From Siphonodentalium dalli (taxonomy: Eukaryota; Mollusca; Scaphopoda; Gadilida; Siphonodentaliidae), in assembly GCA_032622095.1 (NCBI GenBank), contig CP136061.1, positions 54,261,762 to 54,325,761 on the forward strand: 64,000 nt of DNA, read 5' to 3'. Position 1 is the stretch's first letter, and every line of letters begins with the position of its first letter. A program made the position numbers and the translations under genes. Shown piece after piece: positions 14,948-58,630 of the stretch. The notes beneath the pieces are model-generated. The model was given only the letters and a program-made list of their open reading frames with translations, searched no databases and had not been told where the DNA came from.

Positions 14948-15329
14948 CCCTTTACCCAACAAACCGGCCAAATAAAGCTTCAACAGCCTAAAATATCTTC
15001 GGTCTGTCTCAATAGAACCATACAAATATGGATATCATTGGAACAGGCTCCTTGACCACATTGTGATAGTTACAGTTATGCCCTGTGCCAATGCATTCTC
15101 TTATATATGCGAGTCGACCATAGGTCGCCTCGCATATATAAGAGAATGCATTGGCCTAAAAAAAATCTGTTTTTAACACTTTTTACCATTTTTTCTTACG
15201 TTCTTTAACAATTTTATAAGTTTTAATGTGTTAAGCCAATGCATTCTCTTATATATGCGAGGCGACCTATGGTCGACTCGCATATATAAGAGAATGCATT
15301 GGCACAGGGCCCTTCTGTTGGGTAAAGGG
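14948..15329. mobile_element. TTAA-flanked MITE with double hairpin core
   Basis: TTAA at 14944-14947 and 15330-15333. The ends CCCTTTACCCAACA and TGTTGGGTAAAGGG are perfect inverses. Inside are two hairpins of about 70 bp, each built on CCAATGCATTCTCTTATA, in inverted order and separated by about 80 bp of AT-rich spacer. A 380-bp copy in the opposite orientation lies at 44598-44977. It sits in the CCT2 intron between exons F and G. Confidence 0.82.
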
Positions 15330-25245: not shown

Positions 25246-26291
25246 AGTGATGTGAAATACTTCACTGATGTGTTCCAAACGGAACAGCAAATAATCATCC
25301 CAAAATAAGTTATTTTCATAAATTTTATATCCAAACAGTCAGAAAACACCATCTTTGTTTTAACCCTTTGAGTGCCAGGTCCGAATTTTGTATCAACCCA
25401 TATACCCTGTGCCAATGCATTCTCTTATATATGCGAGTCGACCATAGGTCGCCTCGCATATATAAGAGAATGCATTGGCCTAACAATTTTTCATCATTTG
25501 TTATTATTTTTTACAATTTGTTTTACAATTTTAATAATGTTTTCTTATATTCTTTAACAGACTTATTTTGTAGGTTTAGTGCCAGGGAATCTCACGTTTT
25601 TCATGGACATCAAAATTATTACTTTGAATACTTGGTGATAGTTTTTAGTTATAACATGCCCCTAAGGTTTTATCCAGTTTGTTTTTAAATTCGCTATAGC
25701 ATGCTTAAGCATACCCACAAATTCAACCAAAAAAATCATCTTTAATTTAGGGCCGATTTTACAGGGTTAAACTGAGAGGGTTAAACGAATAAACACAGTT
25801 ATATCATTGGCACAATCATTGCTGTAATGTTTATGCCAAATAAAGTGTCTCTAATAAAGTAGTAAATATTTAACTGTGTGCCTAGTTCAACCAATGTGTT
25901 CTCCGAAATGGTATAGTCAAAGTGTTTGGAAATTTCGACAATCTTAGTTCATTGTTACATTCAATGGCATATAGCAAATTTTGGTATGTACCCATGGATT
26001 GTAAATTAGTTCAGGGAATATGTTTTCTAATTTGTAGGTAATGTTCCCTGGTATTAAAGTAAGTAATGTAACAATTATAATTGGTAAAGTAACCAGAAGT
26101 AACCACAGGTTCTAAGTTTCTAAATTTGTACTTCTGAAATGTAACCGGTGTACCCGACGTGACAACAGGGTACAAATGTTCTGAAATTTTTGCTGCATAC
26201 CAAAATTAGACGTACAGATCTATCCAATGGGGATAGTGTTTTGATATTAACTGATTTGTTTTATTCAATGAAATGAGTCCACAATATGCCT
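25246..26291. mobile_element. TTAA MITE (AGTGATGTG type) interrupted by a second TTAA MITE
   Basis: TTAA at 25242-25245 is followed by AGTGATGTGAAATACTTC. The other end reads gtccacaatatgcct then TTAA at 26292-26295, matching 57901-58247. The body is split by the element at 25364-25780. The right half shares 'gtatagtcaaagtg...tttcgacaat' with 58140-58185. It is longer than its relatives even without the insert, so other insertions are likely. Confidence 0.55.
25364..25780. mobile_element. TTAA MITE with CCAATGCATTCTC hairpin, nested insertion
   Basis: TTAA at 25360-25363 and 25781-25784. The ends CCCTTTGAGTGCC and actgagaggg are imperfect inverses. One complete 70-bp hairpin of the shared core lies at 25409-25481; the second has been lost. 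Confidence 0.6.
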
Positions 26292-43490: not shown

Positions 43491-43863
43491 TATGAGACCA
43501 TTACAAATATTGTAGGCTTCTCAGCATAAGCGAAGAAACAAATGCCCCCATCATAAACAACCTGTATGGACAGATAAAATTCAGAGATAAAATATCTGAA
43601 ATTTAAGTTGAGATTGGTCTTTCATGCAATCGGGTGTCATTGGGAGGAACTGGAAAGCACACAAAACCAATTGAGATCAGTTCATTTCCATTGTTGTTCC
43701 CACCCCACCTCCCCGTAAGCATATTTTTGCAGATATACCTGAATTCACATGTCAGTTACATTCAGTTTAGCTAAATAGCACAAAAGGAAGATAAACTTAT
43801 TCTTGTATCTTGGAAAGTTTGTCAGTTGCAAGGGGTCAGTGGTTTCTATGTGCAATGGAGTTA

Positions 43864-44597: not shown

Positions 44598-44977
44598 CCC
44601 TTTATCCAACAGAAGGGCCCTGTGCCAATGCATTCTCTTATATATGCGAGTCGACCATAGGTCGCCTCGCATATATAAGAGAATGCATTGGCTTAACACA
44701 TTAAAAATTATAAAATTGTTAAAGAATGTAAGAAAAAATGGTTAAAAGTGTTTTTTTAGGCCAATGCATTCTCTTATATATGCGAGGCGACCTATGGTCG
44801 ACTCGCATATATAAGAGAATGCATTGGCACAGGGCATAACTGTAATCATCACAATGTGGTCAATGAGCCGGTTCCAATGATATCCATATTTGTATGGTTT
44901 TATTGAGACAGACCCAAGATAATTTAGGCTGTTGCAGCTTTATTTGGCCGGTTTTGGCCGGTTTGTTGGGTAAAGGG
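44598..44977. mobile_element. TTAA MITE with double hairpin core (inverted copy of 14948)
   Basis: TTAA at 44594-44597; the other site reads TTAG at 44978-44981. Ends CCCTTTATCCAACA and TGTTGGGTAAAGGG. Both 70-bp hairpins are intact. The sequence is nearly the reverse complement of 14948-15329 over its whole length. Confidence 0.82.
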
Positions 44978-51440: not shown

Positions 51441-51892
51441 CAGGTCTGAGTTTAGTGTGCCTGTCATTTGCAGAATGAGGTCCCCAGAGGGTGAATAGTG
51501 ACGCTGTCCCGCATAGCGGGCTAGCATCACTAAATTCACCCTCTGGGGACCTCATTCTGCTTAGGCCTCATCTTCTCTGGAAAGTTTCTTTATTATCAAA
51601 TTTCTATAGAAACTTCTTAACAAAGATTCTATTTCTTTTTTAGTGTAGTTTCTCTTTATTCCCAAACGACGCATTGCATAATTGAGGTTCCCAATGGGTG
51701 TACAACACAATATTCACCATTTGGGAATTTCAATCTGAGTCTATGTCTCCCATAGCAGATGAGGCCATGCAGAATGAGGTCCCCCAGAGGGTGAATTTGG
51801 TGATGCTAGCCCGCTATGCAGGATAGCGTCACTAAATTCACCCTCTGGGGACCTCTTTCTGCAAATGACAGGCACACTAATCTCAGGATTGG
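51441..51892. mobile_element. Nested-hairpin MITE (copy 4)
   Basis: Two GCAGAATGAGG hairpins (51470-51563 and 51769-51866) lie inside inverted ends with 'agtgtgcctgtcatttg' and 'caaatgacaggcacact'. Confidence 0.75.
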
Positions 51893-52699
51893 AACAATGC
51901 TCTTTTGAAAGCTGATATCTGACTGTTAGAATCTCATATTGATGGGCTCATGGTACGATCTAGTTATTTTCTGGTACAGAAAACATACCATTGTAGTTTT
52001 ACAATGTCATATTGGATGGGGCATCTTTATTTCTTCATGACACTGCCATGGTAATTGCTGTGGTGATCACTTTTTGTCATGGCATTTTATTGCCGTGGCA
52101 GTTACGCGGCGGTGAACAAGTGTATTTGTAAGTACATGTAGTACACAGTAATCATGTAGATAACAGGACGTGGTAATTGTCGTAGTAGATACTCGGCTCT
52201 GAAATGATGAATTCATTACTAGTAGTGAATTACATTGTAGAACTGCAGGTAACGTGATATATTTAATATATACGCCCCACTTTCGTGTTGTGCGGTTAAC
52301 CGAGAAAACAACTCGGTTTCGGTTTTAAAAAATACCGACCGAAACCGACCGACGTGATTCTGCCCCAACCGACATTACGTTTTTTTTTTGTATGTTTATT
52401 TTTCAATTGAATCGACTTGTTAGTTGATACTGTTGTCAAATAATCGGCCTCTCTGATAAATTATATATCGGAATGTACCCATACTACTCATCTTAGGGGA
52501 GATTTTGACACATTTAAATGTTGTCAATATAAGTTGAACACAGCCGTGATAGCAGGGTTTTGGAAATTATTCATCAGTCAACTCGACCGAGAGAGGTGAT
52601 AAAATGGAGAACAAATGACAGCCATTTTAGTATGATGGAAGTGCCCTGTCAAAGCCATGGTAAACTGATTTATCCACAGCAGCATGTTGCCGTGGCAAT
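51893..52699. other. Intergenic, nothing recognised
   Basis: Includes short imperfect palindromes around 'tgccatggtaattgc' and 'gccgtggcagttacg' (52045-52105) and a T-rich run near 52380. No gene. Confidence 0.35.
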
Positions 52700-52967
52700 T
52701 TATTCCCAATTTCGAGGGCTGGGAGTCTCGCTGGTGCAGCGTTAAATATTGTGCCAGTGCATTCTCTTATCTATGCGAGTTTCCCATAGGGAGCCTCGCA
52801 TATTTAAGAGAATGCACTGGCTCACAAGGTCAAGGTAAATATTGTTAGGCCAATGTATTCTCGTATATATGCGAGGCTACTTTTGGCAGACACACATATA
52901 AAAGAGAATGATTGCATTGGCGCAGGGTTTTTTCGCAAAATTTCAGAAAGCTCCAGTCATGGAATGG
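52700..52967. mobile_element. TTAA MITE related to 5874-6127
   Basis: The right end 'gctccagtcatggaatgg' is followed by TTAA at 52968-52971. The left end is degraded (gctgggagtctcgctggtg). Two inner hairpins with the AATGCATTCTC / GTGCATTCTC core are recognisable. Confidence 0.55.
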
Positions 52968-52971
52968 TTAA

Positions 52972-54300
52972 ATAATTAATACCACTATAGTATAATTAGG
53001 ATCTCGAACACTGAGAGAGCATGACTTTAAGATCTCCATTTATCTTTGCTGTCACCTCTCAGTTTAAATCCATTAAATATTTACTTCGGCAATCATTTAT
53101 TTCTTTGTCCAGCTTAAAAGTGATGACAGATTCCGCTGAAGTCGTTGTCTAGACCCTGGTGTTCAATTTGAATTATTCATTCGCCTCGTTTTTTCAGTCT
53201 TAATGTAACAATACTTTCTCGATCCTTTTGTCTCAATTTGTTCACAGAATGCGTCAATCAAATAGCTGTTTCTTAGATTTGCTGAGATCGATATTTGAGA
53301 TTTATCAGGGGCACCCCCTGAGATGAAAAATTCATTAGCGTTTTGCTCTTGTATTATACTGGTCTCCACTTAAGAAATGGATGTTCATATGCTTGTGTTC
53401 CATGTAGTATGGATAAATGTTTGACTGACATTTCGTGTTCCAGACATAAAAATATCAGATCAACTTGCATCCAAACTCTATGGAATACAGCAACATCAGC
53501 ATTCAGTCCTTATATTTACTATCAGCTGGCAGATTATAAGAGAATTTATAGCGCCCATTTTCATTAATCTGGCAACACATTGCAAGTTGCTTCAATACAA
53601 TATGGAAACAAGTTAAGGCCTGGGTGTGGTGTCACATGACATGATTTAAAACCAACCAACATCCTGTTTTCAAGATCCACAGCGCAAATACTTGTATGAG
53701 TGTTAATATTGGCAGTTAATTGGTGTTTTGTTTCATAATAATTAGCTTGAGGTAAAAAGACTCATTTATAATTTTATGAACCTGACCCCGGTGGAGATAG
53801 TAAAACTCTAGACAAGATTGATTCCCGAATGGACTCTGTTTTTATTTTGATGATGGATAACTTTAACATGATTTATTCCATAAAAACAGAGTCAAAGTTT
53901 TAAAACAATATATGTATAACATGATATCTAAAAATATATGTGTGATAAGCTATATATATCGAGGTGGACGACAAATTCGCCACAGTTGAAGCGGATCAAA
54001 CTCTTTGTCACTAATTTGTTTCTGCAAATAATTTGGTACGCTTCAACTCGGCCACCAAAGGAGCAGGACCTGGAATTAGTGGTGAGCCAAAGAACATTCG
54101 GGATGGTTTGATGAACATGGGTGTAGGAATATAATGGAAATGTGCATGCATATGATTATAGTAGGCATTTAAGAGGAAACAAAAATTAAAAACAAATCGC
54201 CTGATATGTAACGAAGAGGTAAAACAGGCTATGACTAACTATTTATCTGGACGGATAAAAGAAACGGCTCTAAATGACTCAAGTTGATGTACGTCGTTTA
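52972..54300. other. Intergenic, nothing recognised
   Basis: Frames at 53163-53369 (-) and 53343-53567 (+) show no recognised family. A small inverted pair 'gactctgtttttat ... ataaaaacagagtc' lies at 53833-53894. Confidence 0.35.
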
Positions 54301-54339
54301 ACGTGCCATACTATAGGTATAAAATATTTGGTCCCTGTA

Positions 54340-54535
54340 CAGAAAGAGAATCCCCAACATTATAATGGACGCCCATGCCAAGTCCGAGATGTTGGGGTCT
54401 GCCTTTCGGTAGGAACATGAATTGATAGAGGATTTTGTAGACCGCAGAATGAACCAAACCTCGGAAAGAGATTTCGATGCCTCACATGTGATGCCCATGC
54501 CTAGTCTGAGAGGCATCGACCTTCCTTTCGGTGGT
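54340..54535. other. Two paralogous hairpins with covarying 9-bp stems
   Basis: Two units 122 bp apart share flank, loop and tail but not stem. Unit 1 has stem CCCCAACAT (54352-54360) and ATGTTGGGG (54389-54397). Unit 2 has CGATGCCTC (54475-54483) and GAGGCATCG (54510-54518). Both are preceded by GAAAGAGA. Both loops contain GCCCATGCC plus A or T inside a small GAY/GTC stem. Both are followed by CCTTTCGGT (54402-54410, 54524-54532). They lie just downstream, on the minus strand, of the recombinase remnant. This looks like a structured RNA or a protein-bound folded DNA site. Confidence 0.6.
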
Positions 54536-54564
54536 CTCGGCTGATCCTGATTGTCTGTTGTTGC

Positions 54565-54816
54565 TCACAAAGGAGTGTGGCGAATATAGCGACGAAAGGC
54601 ATCGGTTTTCCAGCGACCCAAATGTTGGATCTGTAAGTCCGTGAATCCCACCTGAGCTGCTAAGGTAGCCGCGCCGATTCGGAAAGAGTGCCCTTTGAAG
54701 ACGTTGGTATTTATTTGACAGAAATTAAGTACCTGGTAAAGTTTTTTATCAAAAGTTTGACCATTATCATCAATATTTTTATTCAGGAACCAGTCGCACT
54801 GACTCTTAGTCCCCTG
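54565..54816 (-). pseudogene. Tyrosine recombinase C-terminal remnant
   Basis: Minus-strand frame of about 83 codons, open from an in-frame TAA at 54817-54819 to TGA at 54565-54567. It contains GHSFRIGAATLAAQVGF, then LQIQHLGRWKTDAF and RRYIRHTPL. The H-x-x-R box (HSFR), the HxxGRW motif and the tyrosine in RRYIR are the second arginine, His/Trp and nucleophile region of tyrosine recombinases. Animal relatives occur in DIRS-like and other YR transposons; the superfamily cannot be set from this piece. The N-terminal half with the first catalytic Arg is missing and there is no start codon near. Confidence 0.75.
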
Positions 54817-54913
54817 TTACAAGTTAATAAAATACAGATTGTCACAATCAAATTTACATTTCAAAAGTACACATTTATAAAAAATGAGTCATAAGCACTT
54901 CTCGTTTATTATA

Positions 54914-54943
54914 CAGTAATGCCCTAAATAATCGACTCCTTAC
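54914..54943. repeat. Solo end of the 210-bp palindromic MITE
   Basis: TACAGTAATGCCCTAAATA and about ten more bases match the outer end of 43864-44073, then the match stops. Confidence 0.65.
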
Positions 54944-55109
54944 AACTGTTACCCGCATAGCTAAATGGTACATATCTACTCAAACAGACCACGCGCACAC
55001 CCAACCATCCAAATACCCGCACAAACGATGTTAACCCACACTCCTCACTTCCAGGACTTCGTGCTTATTTATAATTACCACCACAAACGCTAGATAACCG
55101 CACTTGTAA

Positions 55110-55340
55110 CCTGCAAATTGGCAGACGACACACTGCATAATCAAAATGGTGAATATTGTGATGTACACCCATTGGGAACCTCAATCCGAGTCTGTCTCCC
55201 ATAGCAGATGAGGCCATGCAGAATGAGGTCCCCAGATGTTGAATTTGGTGATGCTAGCCCGCTATGCGGGATAGCGTCACTAAATTCACCCTCTGGGAAC
55301 CTCATTCTGCAAATGAGAGACACACTAAACTCAGACTTGG
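55110..55340. mobile_element. Nested-hairpin MITE (copy 5, right half)
   Basis: Contains the 'cccattgggaacctcaat' spacer and one complete GCAGAATGAGG hairpin (55217-55312) with the right end 'gagacacactaaactcag'. The left hairpin is missing. Confidence 0.65.
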
Positions 55341-56588
55341 TATCTGGGCATGGTTTTCAACTCCTTTCCAGGCATTGGTGATTTCAACATGCAGTGGAGT
55401 GATATCGCATTGAAATTAACCCTATCTCTGTACTCTCTTTCCTACATCCATAAACAGCAATAAATTACTCCTGCATAACAGGTTACGGGAGCAATTGCTC
55501 CCGCAATTCACAAATGAGTAAATGTTCATCTTATTGGTAAATTGAATAGTTATTACTGTATAATATATATTAACATTTTAATTTACAATGTACATGTTAT
55601 TGTTTCTACTTTGTGTTTGTGTTGATTTAAATTGTTATTCCCTGGGGTCTTATTACAATGAATGCCAAGTCAATTACTAGTAGGGTCCATGAAATTTTAT
55701 TAATAAATAATTCAATTAAAATAAATCTATGAAAACAATACTAGTAGCAGTTGTTGTACTATTTTCGGCATCAAGTTGCTCGAAATGCACAGCACTCAGG
55801 TGGTTTTTTTGTTTAAGTGCTGCTCCAGAGTCCATTTGGAAATAAAAGACTAACTGGCTGCCATTTCGTCAAACTGTTTTAAGGCTTTACCGGTAAGTTT
55901 TTTTCCAAACGCGGTCAGAATGCTTGGCGCATGCTTTACAATAAGCTTTCATGATGATTGTTTTGCCATCCCTGTACTCATTCTCATAACCAAAAGATAT
56001 TTTAAACGTCCATGATAGTTCGGAACATTGACAGGAAAACCATGATTATTATTTTTTTTTCAAAATGTGGGTGCGTTCGATATGGTTTGCCAGGGTTTCC
56101 GGTGAGAATACATTCCGGCCAGAAGTTCACACTAAAGCGCAGGTTTCCACTGTAAAAAAAGACGGGAGCGATACATCAAGCCAGGGAAATCGAAAATGCG
56201 GGCGCTGCCGGGCGCAAGCGCAATAGCGCCCACTGAGGAGGACTGCATAAAACTGGCAATGTCCTGATATGGCCTAGCAGCTTAAATGATACCAAACCCC
56301 AATAATTCAAACTCATACATTATGTATTGTCTGAACTTTTTTTGTTTTCTGCATTATTAAGCTCAGCCTGTTAAGCCCACAATCCTGTTTCAATTATTAA
56401 AGAAAATTTATTGCTGAATATTTCTTGAATTTCATTCCCAATATCCTGTTCTTCTCTTGAAATCAAAGTCTTCGTAATTACCAGAGTGTCTCATTGACGT
56501 CAGCCATACTGCTTGGTAATGCAAAGTCATGTTTTTACAACTTGCAATATCACGGTTCTTTAGTTGTCTGCCTGTCAGGGGAATAGGC
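55341..56588. other. Intergenic, nothing recognised
   Basis: About 1.25 kb of AT-rich sequence; 56156-56250 is more GC-rich (aaatgcgggcgctgccggg). No gene or element can be supported. Confidence 0.35.
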
Positions 56589-56790
56589 GCAAGCCTTGAA
56601 ATAGGGTGTCTGTCATTTGCAGAATGAGGTCCCCAGAGGGTGAATTTAGTGATGCTACCCCACTTACAACTCAGCAGAATGAGGTTCCCAGAGGGTGAAT
56701 TTGGTGATGCTAGCCTGCTATGCGGGGTAGCATCACTAAATTCACCCTCTGGGGACCTCATTCTGCAAATGACAGGCACCCTAGTTCAGC
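56589..56790. mobile_element. Nested-hairpin MITE (copy 6, short)
   Basis: The left hairpin is reduced to one arm (56619-56660); the right hairpin (56676-56764) is complete; ends read caagccttgaaatagg and gacaggcaccctag. Confidence 0.65.
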
Positions 56791-56831
56791 ACATTGATTT
56801 TGTTGTTACCAGCCTGAGGGATATGGGGATT

Positions 56832-57330
56832 TTTATGCCCCCATCCAAAAATGGGGTATATTGGATTAAATGTGTACATCCTTATGTCTGTCCATATGTC
56901 CATCCATCCATCCATGCATCCAGCCACTCATATCTCAACCAGGAGGGCTTTCAAAAGAGGGTTCATTGACGTTGTTCCCATTTTCTGTTCAAGAGTTATC
57001 CCACTTTGTTTATCTGAAAAATGTTGGATTTCCGTCAGCTCATATATCTCAACCATGGGTTATCGGATCTCGATGAAATTTTGTTTGCATATTTGGCATC
57101 AGTAGCTAGGGCTTTCAAAAGAGGTTTCATTGACGTTGTTCACATTCTCCATTCTGCTTTCCGACCTGCCCTTATTTCAATTTGTCACCATGGGGGTAAC
57201 CCAGCACCACGGGTGTGCAACCTCTTGTTTTGTTGGGTGTTTAGGGGTGGGTGGGTTGGGAAGGAGGTGGTTAAGCTGTCTACTCCCCTTTTACTTTGGC
57301 CAAATTTTTCAACCAAGAACAGAATTTCTT
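56832..57330 (+). mobile_element. Pearl-like element with (CCAT)n run
   Basis: Opens with a 'ccccatccaaaaatgggg' hairpin and 'tatattggattaaatgtg', followed by a (TCCA)n run near 56900-56925. Two monomers share 'agggctttcaaaagagg(g/t)ttcattgacgttgtt' (56944, 57108). Frames at 56851-57105 and 57021-57347 read through it. Confidence 0.6.
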
Positions 57331-57371
57331 GCTTGACTGTGCAATAGTTGGAAACTTCAGACTAATAGTAT

Positions 57372-57476
57372 AGTAATGCTCTAAGTAATCGACTCTTTAA
57401 CGACAGCAGAATTATGGGTAATTTTTCAGGATTTAGTCGGAAATATGGCTTGTTGCCATTCATCGGAAAGCTCTCC
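57372..57476. mobile_element. Half copy of the 210-bp palindromic MITE
   Basis: Only the left arm is present (agtaatgctctaagtaat to ggaaagctctcctcgag). The partner arm is absent, as if deleted at the centre. Confidence 0.7.
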
Positions 57477-57896
57477 TCGAGAACAGAATGTTAGGTGTGT
57501 ACTGGAAAATTGTGAACATAACAATAATTAGCTTTGAGACCAAATTTCCAGGTCTACCCCTTCTGCTGTCGGACTAAATATAGACAGTATCCATAGTATG
57601 AGTGGAAATTCAAAGTGACATGGCAATTAAAATTAGCTTGTGGTCACAGGCTACTGCCTGTTAAACCACCGGTGACCTATAGGAGATCAATGATTTACGT
57701 GACATGATGTCAATGCTTCCATTTCAACATTCCTGTAATTTTAGTAATTTGTCACGTTTTAGGTCCGGTCCTCAATGGTTACTTGGGACCTTAAATCCTT
57801 CCTAATCCAATTTACAAACCCAATAATGATTTGAGAAGATTGTTCATAGTGTGTGGGTTGGTAGTAAATTACTTGTTCAAGACTGAACAGGAGAAC
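57477..57896. other. Intergenic, nothing recognised
   Basis: No gene or element could be supported. Confidence 0.35.
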
Positions 57897-57900
57897 TTAA

Positions 57901-58247
57901 AGTGATGTGAAACACTTCGGTAGTGTGATCAAATAGAAATGGAGAAGTTTGCTCAAAGTTGTTATTTTTATGAATATTAATCCAAATTGACAACACACAT
58001 TGTCATTTATATGTATTAATTAAATGCAATGACTCTCGATGGCGAAATCGTTTGCGCTAGTTTATCGCCAATAGTTGTGTCCTGAATCTGATGTAAATAT
58101 TTACAATTGAGCGTATTTCAGACGATGTTTTCCATGGAGTGGTATGGTCGATTTCTTTTAAGTTTTCGACAATGTTAGTATAATGCTACATTCCCCAGGT
58201 AAGGCATATCACTTGAGTACACACCCGAACAAGTCCATAATATGTCT
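57901..58247. mobile_element. TTAA MITE, intact copy (AGTGATGTG / AGACATATT ends)
   Basis: TTAA at 57897-57900 and 58248-58251. The left end is AGTGATGTGAAACACTTC, the right end GTCCATAATATGTCT. It lacks long terminal inverted repeats but ends and target site agree with the copies at 18119 and 25246. Confidence 0.7.
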
Positions 58248-58408
58248 TTAAATGTATATTTTGCACTCATCAAACCGAATTTGTCACAATCACATTATTG
58301 TATTATAATATTATTGGGTATTTAATTTAATTACCCAGTTTCGCAAAAATGGTATCTGAAAGGTTACTGAGGTTTGCTGAATCTACAGTCCTAAATTAAA
58401 CTAGATAC

Positions 58409-58630
58409 CCCGGCGGCTCAGTTGGTAAGGTGCATGCCACATTAAGCAAACATATAAAGCTGTCCAGTGATGGTGAAGCTGGTTCATATCTAGATCATGT
58501 CATGAATATCTACTATGGCTTACACCCGTAGAGTTCATATTCCACCAGTAAAAAACCTTGGGAACTTTTTAAAGTTTTGACAAGGAACCTAATAAAGTTG
58601 ATAAAAATAACATGGGAAATATATTTCTTA
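58409..58630 (+). mobile_element. tRNA-derived SINE
   Basis: 'ggcggctcagttggtaagg' at 58412-58430 resembles a tRNA/RNA polymerase III A box and 'ggttcatatc' at 58481-58490 a degenerate B box. The spacing (about 50-60 bp) is wider than in a true tRNA and no cloverleaf forms, so this is a SINE head, not a tRNA gene. The tail boundary near 58630 is a guess. Confidence 0.6.

What the first reader, a model, noticed from the sequence alone, without database searches (positions are those of the whole stretch)
54340..54535. Twin hairpins with fully replaced but still perfect 9-bp stems beside a tyrosine recombinase remnant
Seen: two units 122 bp apart share flank (GAAAGAGA), loop (GCCCATGCC) and tail (CCTTTCGGT), while their stems differ almost completely (CCCCAACAT versus CGATGCCTC), yet each pairs perfectly with its own partner. 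In the loop a C-G pair becomes T-G, allowed as wobble only if the + strand is the RNA. Such covariation is hard to explain without selection on a fold. Inference: either a structured RNA of a tyrosine-recombinase transposon, or folded single-strand DNA sites used by the recombinase. It is unlike bacterial attC sites, where the arms rather than the loop carry the conserved sequence.
Basis: partly seen in the sequence, partly recalled or inferred. Interest (0 to 1): 0.72.

Follow-up and report, generated by a model that had tools for sequence, protein, structure and literature searches.

The report
Twin covarying hairpins beside recombinase gene
Two related hairpins in an animal-like genome keep the same loops and spacing while most of their stem pairs were swapped for other matching pairs, which suggests that the folded shape matters, but no further copies could be found to prove it or to show what it does.

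Summary
Two ungapped 78-nt units (54336-54413, 54458-54535; start to start 122 bp) are 48 of 78 identical. In a common 10-bp stem register 6 columns are changed on both sides, 1 on one side, 3 not at all; all 10 pair in both units. Identity is 7 of 20 in stem columns, 39 of 49 in the rest of the core. Independent substitutions kept all 10 pairs in 135 of 1,000,000 simulations. 'Fully replaced' is overstated, but the compensatory pattern is unlikely to be chance.

The neighbour is a tyrosine recombinase: an open 83-codon stretch aligning with Cre and with annotated bacterial recombinases. It reads like a last exon, not an obvious remnant.

No Rfam family matches. No relative was found, but the collections searched are viral and prokaryotic, so that is uninformative. 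Function is inferred from two paralogous copies. Best reading: a tandem pair of cis-acting structured RNA elements at the 3' end of a recombinase element. Folded single-strand DNA sites are not excluded, though the attC R-box is absent. The strand is undecided, with a weak lean to plus.

The parts
54336..54413 (+). Unit 1 (distal): outer helix GAAAG/CTTTC, 5x5 internal loop (AGAAT/TCTGC, one A-T possible inside), 10-bp stem CCCCAACATT/GATGTTGGGG, apical part with GGAC/GTCC and loop GCCCATGCC
54458..54535 (+). Unit 2 (nearer the recombinase): same plan, stem TCGATGCCTC/GAGGCATCGA; apical GAT/GTC with one T.G
54414..54457 (.). 44-nt spacer between the units; not similar to the sequence after unit 2 (11 of 44)
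54384..54409 (+). Possible pseudoknot in unit 1: CCGA 54384-54387 with TCGG 54406-54409 (unit 2: CTGA with TCGG); competes with the inner part of GAAAG/CTTTC and with GGAC/GTCC; not statistically established
54568..54816 (-). Open C-terminal stretch of a tyrosine recombinase (83 codons); an acceptor-like CAG covers its first codon, so a last exon would start at 54813 (read by eye, no splice predictor run); TGA at 54565-54567, 29 nt from unit 2

Best explanation
The two units are paralogous cis-acting structured elements in the non-coding segment that follows the stop codon of a tyrosine-recombinase gene, most likely the 3' region of a recombinase transposon or YR retrotransposon. They most likely act as RNA: the apical loop (GCCCATGCC plus AGTC.GAGA) and the internal loop next to the outer helix (GAAAGAGA / CCTTTCGGT) would be the contact surface for one and the same protein or RNA partner. 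The stems hold these loops at a fixed distance and are free to change in pairs. Different stems in the two units would also stop them from pairing with each other or from slipping during copying. Shown: two units, equal spacing, conserved loops, compensated stems, recombinase next door. Inferred: RNA rather than DNA, the partner, membership in the recombinase element, and the use (for example packaging, priming or 3'-end control of the element's transcript).
For: Six both-side changes with all 10 pairs kept; 39 of 49 columns identical in the rest of the core against 7 of 20 in the stem; no indel in 78 columns; three one-sided differences kept as wobble pairs on the plus strand; recombinase confirmed, its stop codon 29 nt from unit 2; on the recombinase's strand the first AATAAA beyond the stop (53500-55100 scanned) lie at 53872 and 53841, which would leave both units inside its 3' UTR.
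Against: Only two sequences, so no tree-aware covariation test. Strand evidence is mixed, and the weakly favoured plus strand is antisense to the recombinase. No transcript data. No copies elsewhere to show that hairpins and recombinase travel together. No further recombinase piece in the window by tblastn with a recalled consensus (next best E 0.29).
Confidence: 0.42

Rival explanations
1. Folded single-strand DNA sites bound by the recombinase: outer helix, internal loop and inner stem would stand for the two recombinase boxes and the unpaired spacer of a folded site, as in integron attC, with recognition by structure.
For: Next to a recombinase gene; both units also fold well as DNA, three of four strands at z about -3.5 or lower; helix, internal loop, helix and apical part resemble a folded attC in outline (recalled).
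Against: No GTTRRRY R-box on either strand of either unit. The apical loop is conserved, whereas in attC that part varies (recalled). No double-strand core-like site (arms 11-13, spacer 6-8, up to 2 mismatches) in 53700-54570, though such matches occur 211 times in the window.
Confidence: 0.15
2. A host or antisense non-coding RNA gene with two hairpins, lying by chance beside a recombinase exon.
For: The weak wobble lean is to the plus strand, opposite to the recombinase; an AATAAA lies on the plus strand at 54826.
Against: No Rfam match at gathering score; at E up to 10 only 4 matches in 54200-54600, best E 3, all far below gathering. The recombinase stop codon is 29 nt away.
Confidence: 0.16
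3. Perfect arms kept by template switching between the arms during replication (quasi-palindrome correction) after an old duplication, without selection for a fold.
For: Would also give paired changes; perfect hairpins are common in the window (223 in 70 clusters).
Against: Does not explain why loops, internal loops and exact spacing are conserved (39 of 49) while the stem is the least conserved part (7 of 20).
Confidence: 0.12
4. A pair of self-cleaving or pseudoknotted catalytic RNAs of an undescribed class, which would release a 122-nt unit.
For: Conserved unpaired blocks, variable stems and tandem arrangement; possible pseudoknot C[C/T]GA-TCGG with no nucleotide between it and the stem.
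Against: No match to any Rfam family, ribozymes included; no CUGANGA; the pseudoknot is short and competes with other helices.
Confidence: 0.08
5. The units are the repeated B parts of Ngaro-type split direct repeats (B1-A2-B2 downstream of the recombinase).
For: Position just downstream of the recombinase, as in Ngaro (passages of PMC4157794; PMC8547959; PMC9210276).
Against: B1 and B2 are described as identical (passage of PMC9210276); here 48 of 78 are identical and the stem differences compensate.
Confidence: 0.03

Closest known systems
Integron attC sites (folded bottom strand)
   Same: Near a tyrosine recombinase; helix, internal loop, helix and apical part in one imperfect hairpin (attC anatomy recalled)
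   Different: No R-box; apical loop conserved and inner stem variable; animal-like DNA
Ngaro/DIRS/PAT retrotransposons, 3' repeat region
   Same: Repeated sequence just downstream of a recombinase gene
   Different: Units are not identical repeats; reverse transcriptase was not systematically searched for
Cryptons (recombinase-only DNA transposons)
   Same: Only a recombinase is recognisable here
   Different: PMC3212892 (passages, 12 of 15 places) describes short terminal direct repeats; hairpin, stem-loop and palindrom do not occur in its main text
Protein-binding twin hairpins of retroelement and viral RNAs (recalled class)
   Same: Conserved loops, variable stems, tandem
   Different: No Rfam match

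Membership tests
Integron attC site | Conserved R-box GTTRRRY / complement in the outer arms (motif recalled) | tested here: not met
   No GTTRRRY on either strand of either unit
Integron attC site | Recombined as a folded single strand by its integrase | not testable with these tools
   Needs biochemistry
Tyrosine recombinase (the neighbour gene) | C-terminal catalytic H-x-x-R, H/W and Tyr (residue roles recalled) | tested here: met
   HSFR, GRW and YIR align with Cre (15 chains listed at E 0.64-0.93, 14 of them Cre or Cre-derived; weak alone); tblastn to annotated bacterial recombinases, best E 6e-5, 517 plasmid records at E up to 1. Against: no Pfam match at E up to 1, no match in phages
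Ngaro-type split direct repeats | Identical B1 and B2 downstream of the recombinase | tested here: not met
   48 of 78 identical with compensated stem differences
Ngaro/DIRS retrotransposon | Reverse transcriptase and RNase H in the same element | not tested
   No systematic search; translations of 51500-58500 were only glanced through
Crypton | Recombinase-only element with 4-6 bp terminal direct repeats (PMC3212892) | not testable with these tools
   No second copy or empty site at hand to set the borders
Any Rfam family | Score above gathering | tested here: not met
   0 matches in the window; at E up to 10, 4 matches in 54200-54600, among them MIR477 over unit 1 at E 7.1 with 13.4 of 65 bits
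Hammerhead ribozyme | CUGANGA core (recalled) | tested here: not met
YR core site in double-strand DNA | Inverted repeats of 11-13 bp around a 6-8 bp spacer (PMC3212892) | tested here: not met
   None with up to 2 mismatches in 53700-54570

The most novel reading that the evidence does not exclude
A eukaryotic recombinase element carries two orthogonal folded single-strand DNA sites (or catalytic RNAs) recognised by loop and internal-loop sequence while stems drift freely: an animal counterpart of structure-recognised recombination, with the conserved and variable parts swapped relative to attC.
Probability: 0.12. Interest if true: 0.85.

Novelty: new variant of a known kind. Interest (0 to 1): 0.47.

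Why it matters
If copies confirm it, this would be a structured nucleic-acid motif linked to a eukaryotic tyrosine recombinase. How these elements choose and join their ends is poorly understood (the abstract start of PMC4157794, calls tyrosine recombinase elements rare and poorly understood), so a recognisable folded site or RNA signal would give a handle for experiments. If it is only a pair of arm-homogenised hairpins, it is a warning that two-copy covariation can mislead.

Tried and rejected
Relatives. Recombinase stretch in viral contigs: 2 pattern matches, none confirmed; with an alignment, 96 pattern matches, none confirmed. Codon patterns of HSFRIGAA / GHSFRIGAA: 0 and 1 (locus L005; by my reading of the translations it is not a recombinase). 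Unit patterns in viral contigs: 0; one search had gap limits that excluded the window's own units, so it shows nothing. Unit pattern in genome contigs: 4 loci, all titled as bacterial MAGs. L003 was read and looks like the end of a coding frame (not translated by a tool); the L001 match was printed and folds differently (whose script then stopped with an error); L002 and L004 were not inspected one by one. The covariance model finds nothing in L001-L005 (5 loci, E up to 5), in the genomes of L003 and L004, or in 232 genomes of the phylum of G001. These negatives say little, since the collections are viral and prokaryotic.

Structure prediction of the 83 residues without an alignment was poor (mean pLDDT 49.5) and was not used. 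tblastn in phages: no match. A weak TEP1_N hit (E 0.016 over 10 residues) came from a read-through frame and was rejected.

I saw no description of such twin hairpins in the titles and abstract starts listed (lists were capped). Passages only were read of five papers: PMC4157794, PMC8547959, PMC2632668, PMC3212892, PMC9210276; in these main texts 'hairpin' occurs only once, in the reference list of PMC2632668.

Full report
What is there. The window reads as animal-like DNA (inference from 37% GC, interspersed short repeats and few long open frames); no genome is held for it. At 54336-54413 and 54458-54535 lie two units of 78 nt that align without a gap, 48 of 78 identical. The next best ungapped match of unit 1 in the window is 36 of 78, and the similarity ends at the unit borders (17 of 80 before, 11 of 44 after). 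No other unit is found in the window by pattern or by a covariance model built from the two (E up to 10).

Anatomy, plus strand. An outer helix GAAAG/CTTTC is unchanged. Next comes a 5x5 internal loop (AGAAT/TCTGC in unit 1), then a 10-bp stem, then an apical part with GCCCATGCC and AGTC.GAGA. Outside the outer helix a few more pairs can form in each unit, two of them changed on both sides (54336/54413, 54338/54411). The stem is the least conserved part (7 of 20 columns identical); the remaining core has 39 of 49.

Is it chance? A single perfect 9-bp hairpin is common in this window (223 in 70 clusters), so one unit alone would mean little. The argument rests on the pair. In the common register 6 of 10 stem columns differ on both sides and still pair, 1 differs on one side (T.G against C-G), 3 are unchanged. 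With the same number of substitutions per arm placed at random, all ten pairs were kept in 135 of 1,000,000 simulations (register chosen on these data). Over all registers, 3 of 20,000 random pairs of 78-nt stretches shared a helix of 10 or more. Free-energy z-scores are moderate and do not separate the strands.

Which strand? Three differences (54361/54388, 54363/54386, 54370/54382) are C-G against T.G and pair in both units only on the plus strand. Against this, a constant A.C (54347/54402) pairs only on the minus strand, as do three further positions in unit 1 (54350/54399, 54364/54385, 54365/54384); 54336/54413 in unit 1 and 54348/54401 in unit 2 pair only on the plus strand. Under plus-strand rules the main helix is 10 bp and the outer 5; under minus-strand rules 9 and 6. 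This is a weak lean to plus, which is antisense to the recombinase, and G.T pairs form in single-strand DNA as well.

The neighbour. On the minus strand 54568-54816 is an open 83-codon stretch ending in TGA at 54565-54567, 29 nt from unit 2. Its HSFR, GRW and YIR align with Cre (E about 0.7, weak alone; catalytic roles recalled), and tblastn finds annotated bacterial tyrosine recombinases down to E 6e-5. Pfam gives nothing at E up to 1. Its first codon is part of an acceptor-like sequence (read by eye), so it looks like the last exon of a spliced gene rather than an obvious remnant. A recalled consensus found no further piece of the gene in the window (next best E 0.29), so the upstream part is missing, beyond the window, or too diverged. 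AATAAA signals on its strand lie at 53872 and 53841, beyond both units.

What it may be. Conserved unpaired blocks, exact spacing and compensated stems are what is expected of structured RNA signals, and also of DNA sites recognised as folded single strands. I favour a tandem pair of cis-acting RNA hairpins of a recombinase element (0.42). The stems may differ so that the two units do not pair with each other; that is inference. A possible pseudoknot between C[C/T]GA and TCGG would suit a more compact RNA, but it is short, competes with other helices and is not significant by itself.

Against known families. There is no Rfam match, no attC R-box, no hammerhead core and no canonical recombinase core site in 53700-54570. 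Ngaro split repeats are described as identical copies (passage of PMC9210276), which these are not. In the main text of PMC3212892 (Cryptons) the terms hairpin, stem-loop and palindrom do not occur. The literature searches listed under Tried and rejected showed no description of such hairpins; that is a limited search.

Limits. Everything about function rests on two paralogous sequences in one locus. The collections searched for relatives hold viral, phage, plasmid and prokaryote DNA, so the absence of relatives of the units is uninformative. Template-switch homogenisation of arms is a real rival for the covariation, though it does not explain the conserved loops.

Noticed in passing
window 53832-53893: Perfect 14-bp inverted repeat (GACTCTGTTTTTAT / ATAAAAACAGAGTC) with a 34-nt loop, further downstream of the recombinase exon.
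   Followed up: no
window 53984-54048: Another imperfect hairpin: arms of 24 nt, 83% complementary, with AGTTGAAGCG/CGCTTCAACT perfect at its base.
   Followed up: no
window 54679-54688 and 54593-54601: Inside the recombinase stretch, TCGGAAAGAG repeats the left flank of unit 2 (54461-54470) exactly, and CGAAAGGCA is the reverse complement of 54400-54408 of unit 1; possibly chance.
   Followed up: no
window 55217-55311: Near-palindromic MITE-like element, arms of 46 nt, 87% complementary, 3 nt apart; just before it 55144-55185 has a 97.6% inverted copy at 51681-51722.
   Followed up: no
window 54910-54942: Short dispersed repeat with 8 further copies at E up to 0.01 (near 43862, 44045, 48779, 49816, 49998, 57369, 63084, 63276), in the presumed intron upstream of the recombinase exon.
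   Followed up: no
window 14976-15173 (+), 25372-25554 (+), 44745-44939 (-): Repeated stretch whose translation reads ...CANAFSYICESTIGRLAYIRECIGL, an interspersed repeat.
   Followed up: no
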